DNA from: Moritella yayanosii
GTDB lineage: Bacteria; Pseudomonadota; Gammaproteobacteria; Enterobacterales; Moritellaceae
NCBI RefSeq assembly: GCF_900465055.1
Contig: NZ_LS483250.1
Location: forward strand, 2,046,001-2,110,000
Reading direction: 5' to 3'
DNA length: 64,000 nt
Part shown: positions 43,032 through 56,210 of the stretch, piece by piece
How the letters are laid out: every line of letters begins with the position of its first letter
How positions within the stretch are numbered: the first letter of the stretch is position 1
Notes under the pieces: model-generated
Database searches by the model: none
What the model saw: the letters and a program-made list of their open reading frames with translations, nothing else
What the model was told of the DNA's origin: nothing
Program-made: the position numbers and the translations under genes

Positions 43032-43427
43032 ATGAGTAAATTACTTAACCAAGCACAAACTATCTTAACTGTCGCAAAAGACACTGCAAAAACATCTGTC
43101 ACTGCTGGTTTTGGTGTTTATGGCACTATCCTTGATCAGGCATCTAAATCATCAGATAAAGCAACGCAATTTTTTGAATCTCTGGTTGAGCGCGGTACGC
43201 AAGTAGAGCCTAAACTGAAAGAGCAAATGTCTGCAATCTTTACTAATAACATCACGTTAGAATCAATTGAAACTAAAGTACAAAGTATCACTAGCCGTTT
43301 TACGGGTGTTCAAGGTTCCAAATTAAATGAATTAGAAAGCAAAATTGACCTACTTACTACGATGGTTAGCGAACTAAAAACTGCACCTAAAAAAATAACT
43401 AAAGTACCTGCAACTGCTGAAGCATAA
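43032..43427 (+). CDS. Phasin-like granule-associated protein, copy 1
   Basis: The 131-residue protein is almost entirely amphipathic helix (L-L-N-Q-A-Q-T-I-L-T-V-A-K; F-E-S-L-V-E-R-G; I-D-L-L-T-T-M-V-S-E-L) with a disordered K/A/T/P-rich tail, as in phasins and PHA granule-associated proteins. No polyhydroxyalkanoate synthase gene is nearby, so the role is inferred from fold and composition only. A second gene at 48773 is identical at 124 of 131 positions. GACTGATAATC precedes the start; a strong terminator follows. Confidence 0.6.
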   Translation: MSKLLNQAQTILTVAKDTAKTSVTAGFGVYGTILDQASKSSDKATQFFESLVERGTQVEPKLKEQMSAIFTNNITLESIETKVQSITSRFTGVQGSKLNELESKIDLLTTMVSELKTAPKKITKVPATAEA

Positions 43428-45798: not shown

Positions 45799-46047
45799 TT
45801 AGAACCATTCATTGCTGCCACCTAATATATTTTTGCTACTAGGTGTATCTACAGCGAGGCTGATACCAAGACCATTAAGGATTTTAACTATTGTTGAAAA
45901 ATATACATCTTCACCCTTTTCAACTCTGATCAAGGTCTTCTTGGTAACACCACAAAATGACGCTGCGATTTCCTGAGTCATCGATGCTGCCTTTCTATGG
46001 TCTTTAATCAATTTACCTAAGGTGCTTGGATCGAGTTGAGTAACCAT
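45799..46047 (-). CDS. Orphan HipB-like XRE antitoxin
   Basis: The 82-residue protein is one XRE helix-turn-helix domain (T-Q-E-I-A-A-S-F-C-G-V-T-K-K-T-L-I-R-V-E-K-G), with a C-terminal strand (L-G-I-S-L-A-V-D-T) like HipB. A hipA gene would normally follow but is absent; only the truncated antitoxin lies downstream. Three inverted repeats upstream (46061-46182) suggest that it represses its own promoter. Confidence 0.8.
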   Translation of the reverse strand: MVTQLDPSTLGKLIKDHRKAASMTQEIAASFCGVTKKTLIRVEKGEDVYFSTIVKILNGLGISLAVDTPSSKNILGGSNEWF

Positions 46048-48498: not shown

Positions 48499-48772
48499 GA
48501 TTAGCATTTTCATATTGTATAACTGGGTATTGGATACTGACGGCGAACTCCGTTAGTATTCGGGCACTCAACGTTGGGGAAGCAATTCTGAGACTAGCCA
48601 ATGGCAACGCTTTAAATCAGTTTTTTTACAATTACGGCCTATTGAGACATATTTGTAGATAAAATTATAAATGTATCGATTTACTCTGGTATTACCTTTC
48701 TAAATAAAACCAATATGATTAACTCAGTTGAAACAAACCTTAATCAGAATTATTTAACGAGGAGTGATTATC

Positions 48773-49168
48773 ATGAGTAAATTACTTAACCAAGCACAAA
48801 CTATCTTAACTGTCGCAAAAGACACTGCCAAAACATCTGTCACTGCTGGTTTTGGTGTTTATGGCACTATCCTTGATGAAGCATCAAAATCATCAGATAA
48901 AGCAACGCAACTTTTTGAATCTCTGGTTGAGCGCGGTACGCAAGTAGAGCCTAAACTGAAAGAACAAATGTCTGCAATCTTTGCTAAAAAAATCACGTTA
49001 GAATCAATTGAAACGAAAGCACAAAGTATCACTAGCCGTTTTACGGGTGTTCAAGGTTCAAAACTAAGTGAATTAGAAAGCAAAATAGACCTACTTACTA
49101 CGATGGTTAGCGAACTAAAAACTGCACCTAAAAAAATAACTAAAGTACCAGCAACTGCTGAAGCATAA
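48773..49168 (+). CDS. Phasin-like granule-associated protein, copy 2
   Basis: 131 residues, identical to the gene at 43032 except at seven positions (for example Q36E, F47L, V83A, N99S and three residues at 71-73). ATG 48773 has GAGGAG before it, a better ribosome binding site than copy 1, and is preferred to 48764. Both copies keep an intact frame and terminator, so both are probably expressed. Confidence 0.65.
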   Translation: MSKLLNQAQTILTVAKDTAKTSVTAGFGVYGTILDEASKSSDKATQLFESLVERGTQVEPKLKEQMSAIFAKKITLESIETKAQSITSRFTGVQGSKLSELESKIDLLTTMVSELKTAPKKITKVPATAEA

Positions 49169-49761: not shown

Positions 49762-51093
49762 ATGGTAGATCAAGTCGGAAATATTGAGATGGCTCACCCT
49801 CATACTGCAATAACAAGCTACAGTGGTTATATTTATCAAGGAAAAATAGCTCTATTACATTGTCTTAGATTAATTGAACAAGCCCCAGAAGAAAGCCGAA
49901 GACTAAAATTACAAATTGAAAGCATTGAAGATTTTGCAATTTTAAATACTGATAATACTTGTAAATCATTACATCAAGTGAAAGCGAGAAAAGATCGTCT
50001 ATTCTCAGACTATCGCCCCGATGTTGAAAAACTTCGAGATAAAGCAAATCTTCACGAAGATTCTGAACCGTTCTTCCACGTATCTTTACCATTGAGATTA
50101 ATACCTAGCACGTTTACAAGTGAATACTCCCCTATAACATTTTACCAATACTTTGATACCAACGATAGCCCCGTTGACCACTGCCCCCTTGAGAGTGTCG
50201 ATATGTTTATCGAACACCAAATTAAGAAAGTTTATCAAGTGGTTTTTCCTGATGAAGAGTATCGCGCTAGTAACGACTATTTAATTAAGAGCCGTCAATT
50301 CCTAGAAGATATTATTATCAAGCATGTTATTGATGTTCACCGCGAAATACAACAAAGCACAGTAACAGGCGCTGTACAAAGCAGAGTAGCAGCCAGCCGA
50401 TATATTGAATTTGATCGGATTTTAGAAATATTGACCCAAGACCTTACTGACCGCTATTTAGATGAGAGTTATTTCCACTATTTGCTGTTAAAGGATGCAG
50501 GGACATATTTCCATGACTACTGCCAGAATGTGGAAGACAACAACGCAAATACATTACTTAAGCTAAATTATTATTTTTCTAAATTTAACGCACTAAATCC
50601 TAGTTCGTTGACAAAGTTTATCCGAGCAATAGCGCCTCATAAAAAAGTTGGATTTAATAACATATCTCAATATAAAGATAATACATTCAATCGAGATGAT
50701 TTTAAGAGAGGATTGCTAAAAGTATTGGATCAAATGGCACAATCTGAATTTGATGAATCCTTACAATTACCGTCGTTTTTTTTCTGGAAAAATGACGATG
50801 AATATCTATACCCAACAGCAATTCACGATCACCCAGACGATGCTGAAGAACTCTGTATTGAAATAATCGAGGCATCAATAGCTGATGACGTTAACTTTTT
50901 ATTTGAGGGTGGAAAATTAGTTAATCGACATATTAATTGTCAATCTATTTTCTCAAGTGTTGTAGTTGGTAATCAGATTGAATTTAACCTTGAAGATGAA
51001 TTTTCTAGTGATCTAAACGAGAACAGAATAAATAGTTTTAGGAATGTATCACTCATATCCATAGCAGAAGCCAATCGAGTTATAAATGATTGA
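49762..51093 (+). CDS. ABC-three-component system effector with putative PD-(D/E)xK nuclease
   Basis: The 443-residue protein starts with S-Y-S-G-Y-I-Y-Q-G-K (residues 19-28), a motif found in DUF4297/Cap4-like nucleases and ABC-3C effectors. It is followed by E53-S-I-E-D57 and H71-Q-V-K74, which fit the E...D...QxK core of PD-(D/E)xK nucleases. The remainder (about 150-443) would be the C-terminal domain that couples it to the ATPase. It overlaps the next gene by 8 bases, forming a three-gene operon. I infer an anti-phage or anti-plasmid nuclease; no test is possible from sequence alone. ATG 49762 has AGGGAAAT upstream. Confidence 0.65.
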   Translation: MVDQVGNIEMAHPHTAITSYSGYIYQGKIALLHCLRLIEQAPEESRRLKLQIESIEDFAILNTDNTCKSLHQVKARKDRLFSDYRPDVEKLRDKANLHEDSEPFFHVSLPLRLIPSTFTSEYSPITFYQYFDTNDSPVDHCPLESVDMFIEHQIKKVYQVVFPDEEYRASNDYLIKSRQFLEDIIIKHVIDVHREIQQSTVTGAVQSRVAASRYIEFDRILEILTQDLTDRYLDESYFHYLLLKDAGTYFHDYCQNVEDNNANTLLKLNYYFSKFNALNPSSLTKFIRAIAPHKKVGFNNISQYKDNTFNRDDFKRGLLKVLDQMAQSEFDESLQLPSFFFWKNDDEYLYPTAIHDHPDDAEELCIEIIEASIADDVNFLFEGGKLVNRHINCQSIFSSVVVGNQIEFNLEDEFSSDLNENRINSFRNVSLISIAEANRVIND

Positions 51094-51573
51094 AATAATA
51101 ATAAATACCTTTGAAATATTTAACTATTCTAAATTACCAAATAGTGATAATCGCATATTTAAATCTAACATAATGGATGATTACTGGGTAATTTATCAAG
51201 GTTCTCCAAGCCAACTTTTAGAAAAAAAAGTACAGAGTGAGTTAATGGCTCAGTGTAAAAAAGTTTGCACCGATCCAGCTTTCGAAAAAAATGCTAATAT
51301 TATTTGCTTATGGAATGTTGAATCGATAGATAAAAAAACCATTCGCCAACTCCATCATGCAGAAGAAGATATCTACTTCTTCAAAAAAAACGTGCTTTAT
51401 TATACTCAAAGTGAACTTACTAGCTATAAAGAACAGTCTTCAACTTACCCTCTTCAAAATTTACTTCAACAAAGTCCAACAAACCCTGAGGTATTCCAAC
51501 GCTATAAAGAAAATATAAATAAAGGCACGTGGGAATCATTACTTTATAGAATATGCATGAAATTAACTTTCAT

Positions 51574-53393
51574 CCGACATTCCGCACCCTATTATAGGTA
51601 TTAATTATCGCTTTTTAACGACACGTTCAATGCAAATGTAGACATGATGTATTTGTGAATGTTGATGTTATACATAAATTGCTAAATCCCGCGTGAAATA
51701 AAAAAAAGCTTGACGGCGATCCCCATATTTGATCTATTAGTTATCTTTGGGCGATGAAAATTATGACCATATCATATTCAACAAAGAGTCTTGATCACCT
51801 CGGTTTAGTTTCAGGCATGTGCAAAGATATTGGTATCGCCAAGTTTATTGATGACGCACATCCCGAACAAAGTAAGGATAAGCACATTTCATACGGGCAA
51901 CTCGTAGAAGCCATGATTTTAAATGGACTCGGTTTTGTTGGTAGAACATTGCATATGTATCCTGAATATTTTGCAGAACGGCCTGTCGAACGCCTTCTTG
52001 GTAAGGGTGTAAAAGCGGAGCATATTAATGACGATGCACTCGGTCGCTGTCTTGACCAACTCTATGAAACTGGCGTTTCCGAGCTATTTCAAGGACTGTC
52101 CGCCCGTACAATTTCACATTTAAAGCTTCCGTGTGAAGGGCTTAATCTGGACTCCACAAGCATTCATGTTGATGGTGAATATAAAGACGAAGACGGTAAT
52201 GCAGCCATTCAACTAGTGCGAGGCTACAGCCGTGATCATCGCCCTGAATTGAATCAGGTGGTGTTAAACCTGATCACTGAAAATCAGGCCGGTATCCCCG
52301 TCTACATGCAGGCGGCAAGTGGCAATATTAACGATAATGAAGGTTTTAAAAATATCGTTAAGCAACATGTTAAAAGTCTTAAAGCGGCCCATAACAACCG
52401 CTATTTCATTGGCGATGCTGCATTATATGTCGCCGAAACGATCCAATCTCTCGATGAACAAGGCCAATTATTCATATCGAGAGCGCCGCAAAAGTTAAAA
52501 TTAGTCAAAGACGCCATATCAGAACAAAACAATTACCATTTCACTGAGTTAGGAAATGGCTATAGCGCAACCTGGATAGATTCAAACTACGGTGATGTTA
52601 AGCAGCGTTGGTTGTTAGTGTTCAGTGAACAAGCAAAAAAACGTGAACAACACACATTAGATAAACGTATGCTAAAAGACGCCACTGCGGCATTAAAATC
52701 ACTGGAAAAACTCAGTAAACAACGTTTTGCTTGTCATGCTGACGCAATGAAAATGCTGAGTATCTGGATGAAATCTCAAGCCAGTATGTCAATGAGTGAA
52801 ATTGACGTTATTGAGCATCCAATTTTCACTAAAAGTGGTCGACCTAAAACAGGTCAAGAGCCGGATGGTTATGAATATCAAGTAACCGGTTTGCTTGCTT
52901 CAAAATTAAATTTTCGCGAACGTAAATTATCCGAAAAAGGGTTATTCATGTTAGCGACAAATGATTGTAGCGATACGTTAACGATGAGCAAAATGCTTGA
53001 ACTATATAAGTCACAGCAAAGTGTGGAAAAAGGGTTTAGATTCTTAAAAAGTCCTGATTTTTTAACATCGTCATTATATTTAAAAAAGGCAGAGCGGATT
53101 GAGGCATTGCTGATGATCATGACGTGTTGCTTGATGGTATACGCGGCACTTGAGCATAAGATCCGAGAGGAGTTGAGAACTAAAGACGTATATTTTCCCA
53201 ATTTAAAATATAAGCCCTGTCAAAATCCTACCGCCCGTTGGGTTTTCTTTTGCTTTCAAGGTATCGACATTTTAACTCTCTCAGAAGAGCCGCAATTAGT
53301 GCTGAATATTAAAGAGCGACATCGAATAATTATTGATTGTATGGGGCCGACATATCAGCAGATTTATTCATAAAATGGGGTGCGGAATGTCGG
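51574..53393 (+). mobile_element. IS1634-family insertion sequence, complete
   Basis: 1820 bp, bounded by inverted repeats CCGACATTCCGCACCC (left, 51574-51589) and its reverse complement GGGTGCGGAATGTCGG (right, 53378-53393). The 6-bp duplication TTTCAT lies on both sides (51568-51573; 53394-53399). The single transposase gene is intact. Intact ends and a perfect duplication suggest a recent insertion. Confidence 0.92.
51754..53373 (+). CDS. IS1634-family transposase
   Basis: The 539-residue protein has an N-terminal DUF4277-like domain (S-L-D-H-L-G-L-V-S-G-M-C-K-D) and a DDE core: D133 in N-L-D-S-T-S, D221 in I-G-D-A-A-L, and E425 in V-E-K-G-F-R-F-L. All three acidic residues are present, so it can be active. 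The frame is open from start to stop. Confidence 0.92.
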   Translation: MKIMTISYSTKSLDHLGLVSGMCKDIGIAKFIDDAHPEQSKDKHISYGQLVEAMILNGLGFVGRTLHMYPEYFAERPVERLLGKGVKAEHINDDALGRCLDQLYETGVSELFQGLSARTISHLKLPCEGLNLDSTSIHVDGEYKDEDGNAAIQLVRGYSRDHRPELNQVVLNLITENQAGIPVYMQAASGNINDNEGFKNIVKQHVKSLKAAHNNRYFIGDAALYVAETIQSLDEQGQLFISRAPQKLKLVKDAISEQNNYHFTELGNGYSATWIDSNYGDVKQRWLLVFSEQAKKREQHTLDKRMLKDATAALKSLEKLSKQRFACHADAMKMLSIWMKSQASMSMSEIDVIEHPIFTKSGRPKTGQEPDGYEYQVTGLLASKLNFRERKLSEKGLFMLATNDCSDTLTMSKMLELYKSQQSVEKGFRFLKSPDFLTSSLYLKKAERIEALLMIMTCCLMVYAALEHKIREELRTKDVYFPNLKYKPCQNPTARWVFFCFQGIDILTLSEEPQLVLNIKERHRIIIDCMGPTYQQIYS

Positions 53394-53594
53394 TTTCATA
53401 CATATTGCAAAAGGATCTAATGAAGACATATCAAACCTGTACAAAAATCATGAAATAGCTATGAATAAAATAAAAGATAAAGATAGTTTAAAAAGTTTAA
53501 ACACCGTGGCTCAAAAATTAAGTGAAAACGAACTCGCCTGTGAACCTGATGAGTTACTTAATTTAATAATGGAACAACTTAAGGCTGGTGAGTT

Positions 53595-55952
53595 ATGAAC
53601 ATTAAATTAAAAAAATTAATTATTAAAAACTTCAAAGTATTCCCCTTTGTTGAGTTAGAAATTACAACTAATAATTTGGCTCTACTTGATGGCCCTAACG
53701 GCTTTGGAAAAACAACATTTTATGATGCCTTAGAGCTCCTGTTTTTGGGGAAAGTAACAAGGTATATTGATTTAGACTCAAATGTATCTAATCAAAGGAA
53801 ACATATTGGGTGTTTTCCACTTCTTTATGATGGTACTAAGTCCGGTGACTCATTATCCATTGAGGCCGAAATTGAGTTAGGCCATGGTGTGAAATATATA
53901 AAACGATGCGCAACAAAAGAAACTCTGGAAAGTACAAAGCGTATAGCGGATGCTAAGTTCCACTTTTATGTCAAAGAATTAGAAAGTGATAAGTGGGAAA
54001 AAATTTCAGATGACGAGACTTATTTATCTAAACTACTTGGAAGTAACTACAAAAAAAATTATGGTTTATTCCACTATATAGAACAAGAAGAAAACACCTT
54101 AATGCTTAAAAGCAAAGGTGAGTCAAAGCAACAAAAAATTGATCACCTATTTGATGTTGAAGATTACCGAAAAAAGATAGAAAAATTAACAAAGATCAGA
54201 ACTAGTATCGCAAAACTAAAAACGCCTGTTAAGAAAAGCACATTGGATACTTTGTTCGCTGAGATTGACGCTTTAAAAAAAGAATCGCTACCAGACAGCT
54301 CAAATTTGATACCCCATACCCGCTTAATTGAGACCAAAAATTTCCCTTGGGATCGCGAAACCGTTGACTTTAGCACTGGTACATATGCTCAATGGACTAG
54401 TGAAACCGGAATATTAACGCGCTTAAAATATTTAAAAGAGAATAGCGATAATTTCTTAAACAACCGTTATAACGAGAACATCAAAAAAAGGTTAGCTTTA
54501 CAGCCTAAGGTGCTAATACCTTTATTGCGGTTTGGTAACCGTATTAACAACATTGCTCAATATAAAATTGAAGTGGATTTATGTGAGGATGCGAAGCAAT
54601 ATGTGGAAAATTCAAAAGCTGGATTAGTTAAATTAGTTAACAATAAACAAATCTTTCCACAAGAATCAATTAGGGACAAATTCCCCGAACACCTCAAATT
54701 TGAAGAGTTCGAATCACAGATTGAAGAGTTAATAACTCTACTAAAATCATCTGATCAGTTAAGCCAGCATTTATCTCAACTTAAATCATCTAGAGCGCAA
54801 TATTTAGAAGATCATGATACCTATCAAAAACAGCTTGATTCAAAGGCATCAGAATGCCCTACATGTGGGCATGACTGGTTAAGCCATGAACAACTTCTTG
54901 CTCAATTTAAAATGCAAGCACAAGCATTGGCGTCGATTCTTAAGGCTAGCGACTCAAGTTTACAAATAAAAGTTCAAGATATTGAAACCAAATACCTATC
55001 CCCGATTATAAGTATTTGTATTGATATAATTAACGCTGAAAAGTCTAAAATTGATTATAAGACAAAAATATGCGAGCTTGACGATAAACAAATAAATCAC
55101 CTGAATCGATTAAAAAAGACCTTTGATGAATATCAGATAGATTTATCTAGTTACTATTTACCATCGTTTGATTTATCAATAGATATACCAACCGAATTAT
55201 TAATAGATAAAGTTAAGACTCTGTATAAGCCTGTTATCTACGATAATTTATCCACAGATCTAGATGATGTATTTACTGAGGTCTTTGAAAACAATGAAAA
55301 TAAATTACTTAAATTAACCATTGCTACAATAGATTTAAAAATAAAGTACTTACAACAACAATATGCTGAATCAAAATTACAAGATATAAAAGACAAAGAG
55401 AAAATATACGAACAAGAAAAAAACAAATTCGATAATGCGGTTAAAATTAACACACATCTCGGTAATCTAATTAGTCTATACACTGATAATGTTAACGACT
55501 ATATAGAGAGCATCAGTAAAGGTATTGAAATCTTATTTCATATCTATTCTGGTCGTTTACTTCAGAATTTTCATAATGGTTTAGGTATATTTATTGAATC
55601 CGATGGCAAATCAATCTCCTTCAAAGATACTCCTACTGCTGAACATGATGTAATTTTCACTATGAGCTCAGGGCAATTATCATCATTAGTCATTGCATTC
55701 ACAATGGCATTAAACCACAAATATGCCAAGCACTCACTATTGTTGATTGATGACCCAGTGCAGACAATGGATGAAATTAATGTTGCAGGTTTTATTGACC
55801 TACTAAGGCATGAGTTTAAAGACCGACAGATTTTCATCTCTACTCATGAAGACCACACTTCAAGTTATTTCAGATATAAATTTGGAAAGGCGGATCTAGA
55901 AACACAGAGAATAAACTTCAAGGATATTCAACGTAGCATGAATGTTACATAG
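53595..55952 (+). CDS. ABC-3C ATPase of the Rad50/SMC type
   Basis: The 785-residue protein has a Walker A G-P-N-G-F-G-K-T (33-40), a long coiled coil broken by a zinc hook C-P-T-C near residues 421-424, an ABC signature M-S-S-G-Q-L-S-S near 690 and a Walker B L-L-L-I-D-D-P near 715. It is therefore a Rad50-like DNA-associated ATPase. In ABC-3C systems it pairs with the middle component and a nuclease effector. It begins with a 4-base ATGA overlap with the middle component, so translation is coupled; the upstream insertion probably reduces its expression. Confidence 0.82.
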   Translation: MNIKLKKLIIKNFKVFPFVELEITTNNLALLDGPNGFGKTTFYDALELLFLGKVTRYIDLDSNVSNQRKHIGCFPLLYDGTKSGDSLSIEAEIELGHGVKYIKRCATKETLESTKRIADAKFHFYVKELESDKWEKISDDETYLSKLLGSNYKKNYGLFHYIEQEENTLMLKSKGESKQQKIDHLFDVEDYRKKIEKLTKIRTSIAKLKTPVKKSTLDTLFAEIDALKKESLPDSSNLIPHTRLIETKNFPWDRETVDFSTGTYAQWTSETGILTRLKYLKENSDNFLNNRYNENIKKRLALQPKVLIPLLRFGNRINNIAQYKIEVDLCEDAKQYVENSKAGLVKLVNNKQIFPQESIRDKFPEHLKFEEFESQIEELITLLKSSDQLSQHLSQLKSSRAQYLEDHDTYQKQLDSKASECPTCGHDWLSHEQLLAQFKMQAQALASILKASDSSLQIKVQDIETKYLSPIISICIDIINAEKSKIDYKTKICELDDKQINHLNRLKKTFDEYQIDLSSYYLPSFDLSIDIPTELLIDKVKTLYKPVIYDNLSTDLDDVFTEVFENNENKLLKLTIATIDLKIKYLQQQYAESKLQDIKDKEKIYEQEKNKFDNAVKINTHLGNLISLYTDNVNDYIESISKGIEILFHIYSGRLLQNFHNGLGIFIESDGKSISFKDTPTAEHDVIFTMSSGQLSSLVIAFTMALNHKYAKHSLLLIDDPVQTMDEINVAGFIDLLRHEFKDRQIFISTHEDHTSSYFRYKFGKADLETQRINFKDIQRSMNVT

Positions 55953-56010
55953 GAATACCCAATAATGATGTTCTGAACTCGTTTAATGAGTATATGGCAT
56001 AGAAAAACAA

Positions 56011-56042
56011 AAAGGCGAATCATCTCTGATTCGCCTTTTTTA
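56011..56042 (+). terminator. Terminator of the ABC-3C operon
   Basis: AAAGGCGAATCA (56011-56022) pairs with TGATTCGCCTTT (56027-56038), followed by T residues. A 12-bp perfect stem. Confidence 0.85.
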
Positions 56043-56142
56043 TTATTTAACAGGGAAATTAACCAACTTGTTAAAGTTAACCATCTTAATTAAATCGTTA
56101 ACCAACTTAATTCCATATTCCCACCCCGATTCAGTAAAAAAA

Positions 56143-56166
56143 AAGACAAACCGAAGTTTGTCTTTT
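56143..56166. terminator. Terminator of gcvP (bidirectional)
   Basis: AAGACAAAC (56143-56151) and GTTTGTCTT (56156-56164) with loop CGAA, and A/T runs on both sides, so it can end transcription from both directions. It lies about 45 bases after the gcvP stop. Confidence 0.8.
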
Positions 56167-56210
56167 TTATTATCTGAACCTGAATTTATAAAACTCAGCT
56201 ACAACCAAAA

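What the first reader, a model, noticed from the sequence alone, without database searches (positions are those of the whole stretch)
49762..55952. Three-gene ABC-3C-like conflict system, interrupted in its middle gene
Effector with GYxYQ, E-D and QVK nuclease marks (49762-51093), small middle component (51086 onward), Rad50-like ATPase with zinc hook (53595-55952), overlapping starts and one terminator. The order and overlaps fit ABC-three-component systems predicted to work in phage or plasmid defence. The IS1634 element splits the middle gene; removing it with one TTTCAT copy gives a continuous 229-codon frame, so the system was intact before the insertion. It sits beside toxin-antitoxin genes and repeated DNA, as in a defence island. 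I cannot say whether its precise type is new.
Basis: partly seen in the sequence, partly recalled or inferred. Interest (0 to 1): 0.8.

Follow-up and report, generated by a model that had tools for sequence, protein, structure and literature searches.

The report
Lamassu phage-defence operon broken by transposon
A marine bacterium carries a three-gene anti-phage and anti-plasmid operon of an already described kind (Lamassu, also called ABC-three-component), and a recently jumping mobile element has landed in its middle gene, so the system is probably switched off in this strain.

Summary
49762-55952 is a Lamassu / ABC-three-component operon: effector LmuA (Pfam CTD1 1e-46; Cap4-type nuclease motifs), middle component 1 (LmuC), and Rad50-like LmuB (PADLOC 2e-59) with Walker A, zinc hook and signature motifs. 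An 1820-bp IS1634-family element (51574-53393; 16-bp perfect end repeats, 6-bp target duplication) sits in lmuC. Three of the genome's five full copies are identical, so the jump is recent. Relatives hold an uninterrupted 228-residue LmuC that the two window pieces match end to end. RefSeq names the same overlapping gene trio on Catenovulum, E. coli and Vibrio plasmids "ABC-three component system ... middle component 1". So this is a broken member of a known kind. The genus is Moritella by inference. Side results: the orthologous operon beside gcvP in a second Moritella (a metagenome assembly) is broken too, by frameshifts; LmuA looks like a mosaic of alleles; the gcvP 3' side is a variable slot where at least four of eleven Moritella genomes carry Tn7-like transposition genes. 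Structure models were too poor to use, and no activity was tested.

The parts
49762..51093 (+). lmuA: effector, Cap4-type (PD-(D/E)xK-like) nuclease motifs plus CTD1
   Evidence: Pfam CTD1 1.2e-46, Cap4_nuclease 3.6e-4 below cut-off; PADLOC LmuA 7.4e-18; invariant motif residues in 5 of 5
51086..51573 (+). lmuC (middle component 1), first piece, codons 1-162 and part of 163; the frame runs 9 foreign codons into the element to a stop ending at 51604
   Evidence: Pfam MComp1 1.4e-10, over cut-off; aligned to intact LmuC
51568..51573 (.). target duplication TTTCAT, left copy
51574..53393 (+). IS1634-family element, 1820 bp, 16-bp perfect inverted repeats; transposase 51754-53373
   Evidence: NF033559 4.2e-114; ends and duplication; five full copies in the genome
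53394..53399 (.). target duplication TTTCAT, right copy
53394..53598 (+). lmuC, second piece (C-terminal 65 residues plus the two residues of the duplication, to the stop)
   Evidence: aligned to residues 162-228 of intact LmuC; matches by LmuC query
53595..55952 (+). lmuB: Rad50/SMC-like ATPase with zinc hook
   Evidence: PADLOC LmuB 1.6e-59; Pfam SMC_N, AAA_23; invariant motifs
56009..56040 (.). terminator-like stem of 14 pairs at the operon's end, readable on both strands

Best explanation
This is a type II Lamassu (ABC-three-component, middle component 1) operon that a recent IS1634-family insertion has broken in lmuC. In its intact form it most likely works as published for Lamassu/DdmABC: LmuB, probably dimerised through its zinc hook, with LmuC senses unusual DNA structure (ends, hairpins, stalled replication) on phage or plasmid DNA; LmuA is then released, assembles and cuts DNA without discrimination, killing or crippling the infected cell. 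In this strain LmuC lacks its last 65 residues and lmuB is cut off from its overlapping partner, so the system is probably off. Shown here: gene identity, order, overlaps, insertion, target duplication, recency, intact relatives. Inferred from published relatives: sensing, LmuA release, abortive outcome. Inferred without test: loss of function.
For: Family matches; motifs invariant in 5 of 5; same trio in annotated relatives and in further loci of the order, LmuB 9 of 9, LmuA 7 of 9; uninterrupted 228-residue LmuC in two relatives; element ends, 6-bp duplications at 5 of 5 full copies, 3 of 5 identical; dN/dS about 0.24 for lmuA and lmuB and 0.15-0.21 for codons 1-162 of lmuC against relatives, i.e. 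selection before the insertion. Mechanism from reviews: PMC10586767 (passages and section 9), PMC12409362 (passages), PMC12904381 (passages).
Against: The Cap4 match is below the Pfam cut-off. PADLOC has no match for this middle protein and NCBIfam none for LmuA. No solved structure matches LmuA or LmuC by sequence, and AlphaFold2 models failed (mean pLDDT 35 and 42). The complete MComp1 match (residues 33-120) survives in the truncated protein, and the lost tail is less conserved (dN/dS 0.38 between two uninterrupted copies). No functional test.
Confidence: 0.85

Rival explanations
1. The truncated LmuC (residues 1-163 plus 9 foreign ones) still works, and lmuB is still made, so the system is active or partly active.
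For: The MComp1 match is complete in the first piece; the lost tail is the less constrained part; some Lamassu systems lack LmuC (PMC10586767 section 9); PMC12409362 reports a contested claim that severely truncated DdmABC variants kept anti-phage activity (passages).
Against: All components were needed wherever tested, according to the same review. lmuB normally starts inside the end of lmuC, and here 1.8 kb of transposon lies before it. The tail is present, at recognisable length, in 5 of 5 aligned middle proteins.
Confidence: 0.1
2. The insertion was selected because the system was costly (self-toxic), rather than being a chance jump.
For: The only orthologous operon found in the genus, G006, is broken too, by frameshifts in lmuA and lmuB; lmuB frames are also split or end early in two other loci of the order, L059 and L062. 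DdmABC shows plasmid-dependent toxicity (PMC12409362 passages).
Against: Two genomes are too few; G006 is a metagenome assembly, where indel errors are possible; the element is active and jumped to at least four other places. No rate of breakage was compared with other genes.
Confidence: 0.25
3. The operon is a DNA-repair or chromosome-upkeep complex, not a defence system.
For: LmuB resembles Rad50/SMC heads in solved structures; Rad50-like RefSeq notes mention double-strand break repair.
Against: Patchy presence (LmuB orthologue in 2 of 11 Moritella genomes), plasmid carriage (58 plasmid records with an LmuA match), fixed effector and middle partners, and LmuB profiles far ahead of repair families.
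Confidence: 0.03

Closest known systems
ABC-three-component (ABC-3C) system with middle component 1, as RefSeq and Pfam name it (Catenovulum adriaticum plasmid pCadTS8_1; E. coli NZ_CP050167.1; V. parahaemolyticus NZ_CP119305.1)
   Same: Same three genes, order and overlaps; LmuA 24-37%, LmuB 26-40% identical to the window's; LmuC 22-38% identical to the intact relative L005
   Different: Those frames are whole; the window's lmuC is split by an insertion element
DdmABC of Vibrio cholerae (Lamassu type II)
   Same: Cap4-type effector, small middle protein, SMC-like ATPase, in that order (PMC12409362 passages; not compared by sequence here)
   Different: DdmB is described as a DUF6521 protein, here the middle gene is MComp1; the review gives Glu to Gln at the Walker B place for LmuB in general, here it is Asp in 5 of 5
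Second Lamassu of Moritella DT_65 (G006, L021:3005-7782)
   Same: LmuA with GYNYQ, E-D and QVK; middle protein; LmuB with a zinc-hook-like CPLCG; PADLOC LmuA 8e-19, LmuB 4e-60
   Different: LmuB only 29% identical; frames uninterrupted; on another contig, not beside gcvP

Membership tests
Lamassu / ABC-three-component | Effector gene with a nuclease (or other) domain and an ABC-3C C-terminal domain | tested here: met
   CTD1 1.2e-46, PADLOC LmuA 7.4e-18; the nuclease domain itself only 3.6e-4, below cut-off, but catalytic motif residues invariant in 5 of 5
Lamassu / ABC-three-component | Small middle component | tested here: met
   MComp1 over cut-off in the first piece; uninterrupted in relatives. 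In this strain the gene is split
Lamassu / ABC-three-component | Rad50/SMC-like ATPase, often with zinc hook, as third gene | tested here: met
   PADLOC LmuB 1.6e-59; Walker A, CPxCG, SSGQ, IDDP invariant in 5 of 5
Lamassu / ABC-three-component | Conserved gene order with overlaps | tested here: met
   8- and 4-base overlaps here; same order in three annotated plasmid loci; LmuB 9 of 9 and LmuA 7 of 9 further loci
Lamassu / ABC-three-component | Phage or plasmid restriction | not testable with these tools
   needs a bench test
Lamassu with Cap4 effector: structure | LmuA fold and complex like solved Lamassu | tested here: inconclusive
   models too poor; no sequence match to solved chains for LmuA or LmuC
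IS1634 insertion sequence | DDE transposase of the family, terminal inverted repeats, short target duplication | tested here: met
   NF033559 over cut-off; 16-bp repeats; 6-bp duplications at 5 of 5 full copies
Cargo of a Tn7-like element | Operon bracketed by both Tn7-like ends, with or without tns genes | tested here: inconclusive
   about 75 bp next to gcvP is related to that of G001, G002, G006 and G007; no second end found; no tns gene among the window ORFs scanned with Pfam

The most novel reading that the evidence does not exclude
The 3' side of gcvP is a Moritella integration slot used by Tn7-like elements; a Lamassu operon was delivered there as cargo, its alleles were shuffled among marine gammaproteobacteria, and it was then silenced separately in both species found to hold it: a local case of gain and repeated loss of an abortive defence.
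Probability: 0.2. Interest if true: 0.4.

Novelty: new member of a known kind. Interest (0 to 1): 0.2.

Why it matters
It is a clear natural break in one Lamassu component. It shows that middle-component-1 systems occur in Moritella, and that such operons there can be gained and broken. Close uninterrupted relatives make the LmuC tail (residues 164-228), whose role I found stated nowhere in the passages read, directly testable. It adds no new kind of system.

Tried and rejected
Structure route: two AlphaFold2 jobs from two-row alignments gave mean pLDDT 35.2 (LmuA) and 42.3 (LmuC), so no fold search was made. Solved structures by sequence: LmuA matched only designed TIM barrels, LmuC only hits at E 0.11 or worse or nothing; LmuB matched Rad50/SMC heads. 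HHpred is not among the tools; Pfam, PADLOC and NCBIfam were used instead.

Pfam MComp1 and CTD1 rang in 1 of 369 class genomes each, the window's own, with 0 of 14 controls. The single-protein LmuC search over 394 order genomes found 12, so the family scans may undercount. One of the 12 (G637/L064) was dropped: its hit lies in a 1663-residue frame and the LmuC profile does not match it. G002's weak LmuB match (50 residues, E 7e-5) was not counted as an orthologue.

Phages: no LmuA match in 50,697 records. Viral contigs: 21 pattern matches for LmuC, 0 confirmed. Direct BLASTP of intact LmuC against the E. coli plasmid middle protein is weak (E 0.004 over 115 residues); that E. coli protein itself matches PADLOC LmuC at 2.5e-14.

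The idea that the operon sits inside a complete Tn7-like element is not shown: no tns gene among the window ORFs scanned with Pfam; the gcvP-downstream sequence of G003 was not found in this genome (no positive control). Primary Lamassu structure and palindrome papers were not held; their content is taken from passages of reviews. Promoter-like sites are at chance level (27 against 28.6).
Full report
WHAT IS THERE. The overlaps are 8 bases (lmuA/lmuC) and 4 bases (lmuC/lmuB). A 14-pair terminator-like stem follows at 56009-56040, found on both strands; the region as a whole has no clear excess of terminator-like sites over shuffles (5 against 3.7, sd 2.0) and none of promoter-like sites (27 against 28.6, sd 5.3).

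WHAT THE PROTEINS ARE. LmuA matches Pfam CTD1, 'C-terminal domain 1 of the ABC-three component (ABC-3C) systems', at 1.2e-46, and weakly the Cap4 nuclease domain (3.6e-4; 21.2 bits against a cut-off of 26.2). PADLOC gives LmuA at 7.4e-18; NCBIfam gives nothing for LmuA. The first piece of the middle gene matches MComp1, 'ABC-3C system Middle Component 1', at 1.4e-10, over its cut-off; PADLOC gives nothing for it. The 785-residue protein matches PADLOC LmuB at 1.6e-59 and Pfam SMC_N and AAA_23. In alignments of five proteins each, LmuA residues G22, Y25, Q26, D57, H71, Q72, V73 and K74 are invariant, and LmuB has invariant GPNGxGKT, CPxCG, SSGQ, IDDP and H751. The acid after the Walker B Asp is Asp in 5 of 5, whereas the review PMC10586767 (section 9) says that LmuB generally carries a Glu-to-Gln change there; this subgroup may differ in ATP hydrolysis (inference).

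THE INSERTION. The element is 51574-53393, 1820 bp, with 16-bp perfect inverted repeats and TTTCAT on both sides. Its transposase is IS1634 family (4.2e-114). The genome has 24 matches to the region searched, five of them full length. Of the four other full copies, two are identical to the window's and two differ at 8 positions, and all five have 6-bp duplications. The jump is therefore recent and the element active in this lineage.

INTACT RELATIVES. The genome-contig scan with LmuA gave four loci (24 pattern stretches, 4 confirmed): an Osedax symbiont MAG, two contigs of one Alteromonadaceae MAG, and a Moritella MAG. LmuC is an uninterrupted 228-residue frame in L004 (Moritella) and L005 (Alteromonadaceae). 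The window pieces align to residues 1-163 and 162-228; the two shared residues are those of the target duplication. RefSeq-annotated plasmid loci of Catenovulum adriaticum, E. coli and V. parahaemolyticus have the same three overlapping genes, called ABC-three component system protein, middle component 1 and AAA family ATPase. In PLSDB, 58 records match LmuA and 18 of them cover at least 80% of it, all below 60% identity. Over 394 genomes of the order, 12 match intact LmuC: the window's own, G006 and ten more. One of the ten was dropped (see Tried and rejected); of the other nine, LmuB lies behind the middle gene in 9 and LmuA before it in 7. In L061 the contig begins too near to show LmuA; in L063 about 1.2 kb upstream shows no LmuA match. 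The profiles were built from alignments that include L046-L048, so only L055-L063 count as a test.

SELECTION BEFORE THE INSERTION. dN/dS (NG86) is about 0.24 for lmuB (window against L005) and for lmuA (window against L002). For lmuC codons 1-162 it is 0.15-0.21 over three pairs; for codons 164-228 it is 0.38 between the two uninterrupted copies and 0.46 and 0.77 for the window against them. The tail is thus less constrained even where nothing is inserted; 65 codons are few.

HOW IT MOST LIKELY WORKS. From reviews: Lamassu has effector LmuA, middle LmuC (lacking in some systems) and SMC-like LmuB, and all components were essential wherever tested (PMC10586767, passages and section 9). For DdmABC a model holds that replication, stem-loops, damage or stalled forks trigger release of the effector nuclease, which cuts DNA without discrimination; an addendum cites preprints that freed LmuA forms a homotetramer that activates the Cap4 domain (PMC12409362 passages). 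Hairpin and end sensing are listed in PMC12904381 (passages). I take the same course for the intact form of this operon; none of these steps was shown here. In the window strain LmuC ends after residue 163 plus 9 foreign residues, and lmuB is separated from its partner by 1.8 kb; inactivation is the likeliest outcome. Against certainty: the MComp1 match is complete in what remains, and one search reports a contested claim that truncated DdmABC variants kept activity.

THE HOST AND THE SITE. G006 contig C23 and record NZ_JABSQR010000025.1 (Moritella sp. DT_65) both have 79,803 bases and the same locus, and the tool gives G006 as same genus, so the window is Moritella by inference; the species is not known. 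Of 11 genus genomes, 2 have the LmuB orthologue (G000, G006), both beside gcvP; G002 has only a weak 50-residue match. In G006 lmuC is intact, while lmuA is frameshifted at a run of T and lmuB near residue 298; as this is a metagenome assembly, error is possible. G006 also has a second, uninterrupted, distant Lamassu.

The gcvP side differs between genomes: stretches of 11.9-19.5 kb from nine genomes, plus G006 and the window, were read. In the 10 of 11 where one search showed the gcvP stop, about ten bases after it are shared and then several sequence types follow. At least four of the 11 (G002, G005, G007, G008) carry Tn7-like transposition genes there: TnsA in all four, TniQ/TnsD shown in three; the other genomes' ORFs were not all scanned. 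The roughly 75 bp next to gcvP in the window is related to that of G006, G001, G007 and G002 (95% to 74%), and a piece of the gcvP 3' end recurs further off in G002 and G001. This suggests an integration slot. That the Lamassu came by a Tn7-like element is not shown. Two Tn7 surveys do not mention gcv in the main text (find in PMC8649781, and PMC10293859); their supplements were not read, and I claim no priority.

MOSAIC. In windows of 33 codons the window's lmuA is 95-99% identical to G006 over codons 1-66 but 70-88% over codons 67-297, and 97-98% identical to the Alteromonadaceae copy L003 over codons 67-132; G006 in turn is 94-97% identical to L003 over codons 166-330. This is the pattern of recombination between alleles; no statistical test was made.

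VERDICT. Observation confirmed; interpretation supported; a new, broken member of a known kind. A further search for Moritella with defence terms (listing only) showed no paper on this locus among the 10 listed of 2,942; that is no proof of absence.

Noticed in passing
window 56101-56210; L037:1124-1282; L039:1348-1453; L038, L040, L041: The 3' side of gcvP is a variable slot in Moritella: at least 4 of 11 genomes carry Tn7-like TnsA genes there, and a piece of the gcvP 3' end recurs in two genomes. It may be a Tn7-like attachment site; the main texts of two Tn7 surveys do not mention gcv.
   Followed up: partly
window 49762-50763 against L020, L002, L003: LmuA is a mosaic of alleles: near-identical to one relative in one stretch and to another in the next.
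   Followed up: partly
L020:9164-13525 (same locus as L004): The orthologous operon in Moritella DT_65 has an intact lmuC but frameshifted lmuA and lmuB; real decay or assembly error.
   Followed up: partly
L021:3005-7782: The same Moritella genome has a second, distant Lamassu with uninterrupted frames.
   Followed up: partly
L003:8916-9017 and L005:1-77: Two contigs of one Alteromonadaceae MAG share 77 bp inside lmuA and then part, as at a fork in an assembly; L003 goes on towards PglZ- and BrxL-like frames (named by eye), so strains may differ there.
   Followed up: no
window 45799-46047: HTH protein 98% identical to one that in Moritella DT_65 sits next to a HipA-like gene; in the window no HipA-like gene lies directly behind it, so it may be an orphan antitoxin.
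   Followed up: no
window 43032-43427 and 48764-49168: Two near-copies of a phasin-like gene (Pfam Phasin below cut-off), repeated also in G003 and G006 at this place.
   Followed up: no
L059, L062: In two further Lamassu loci of the order the lmuB frame is split or ends early, so broken copies may not be rare.
   Followed up: no
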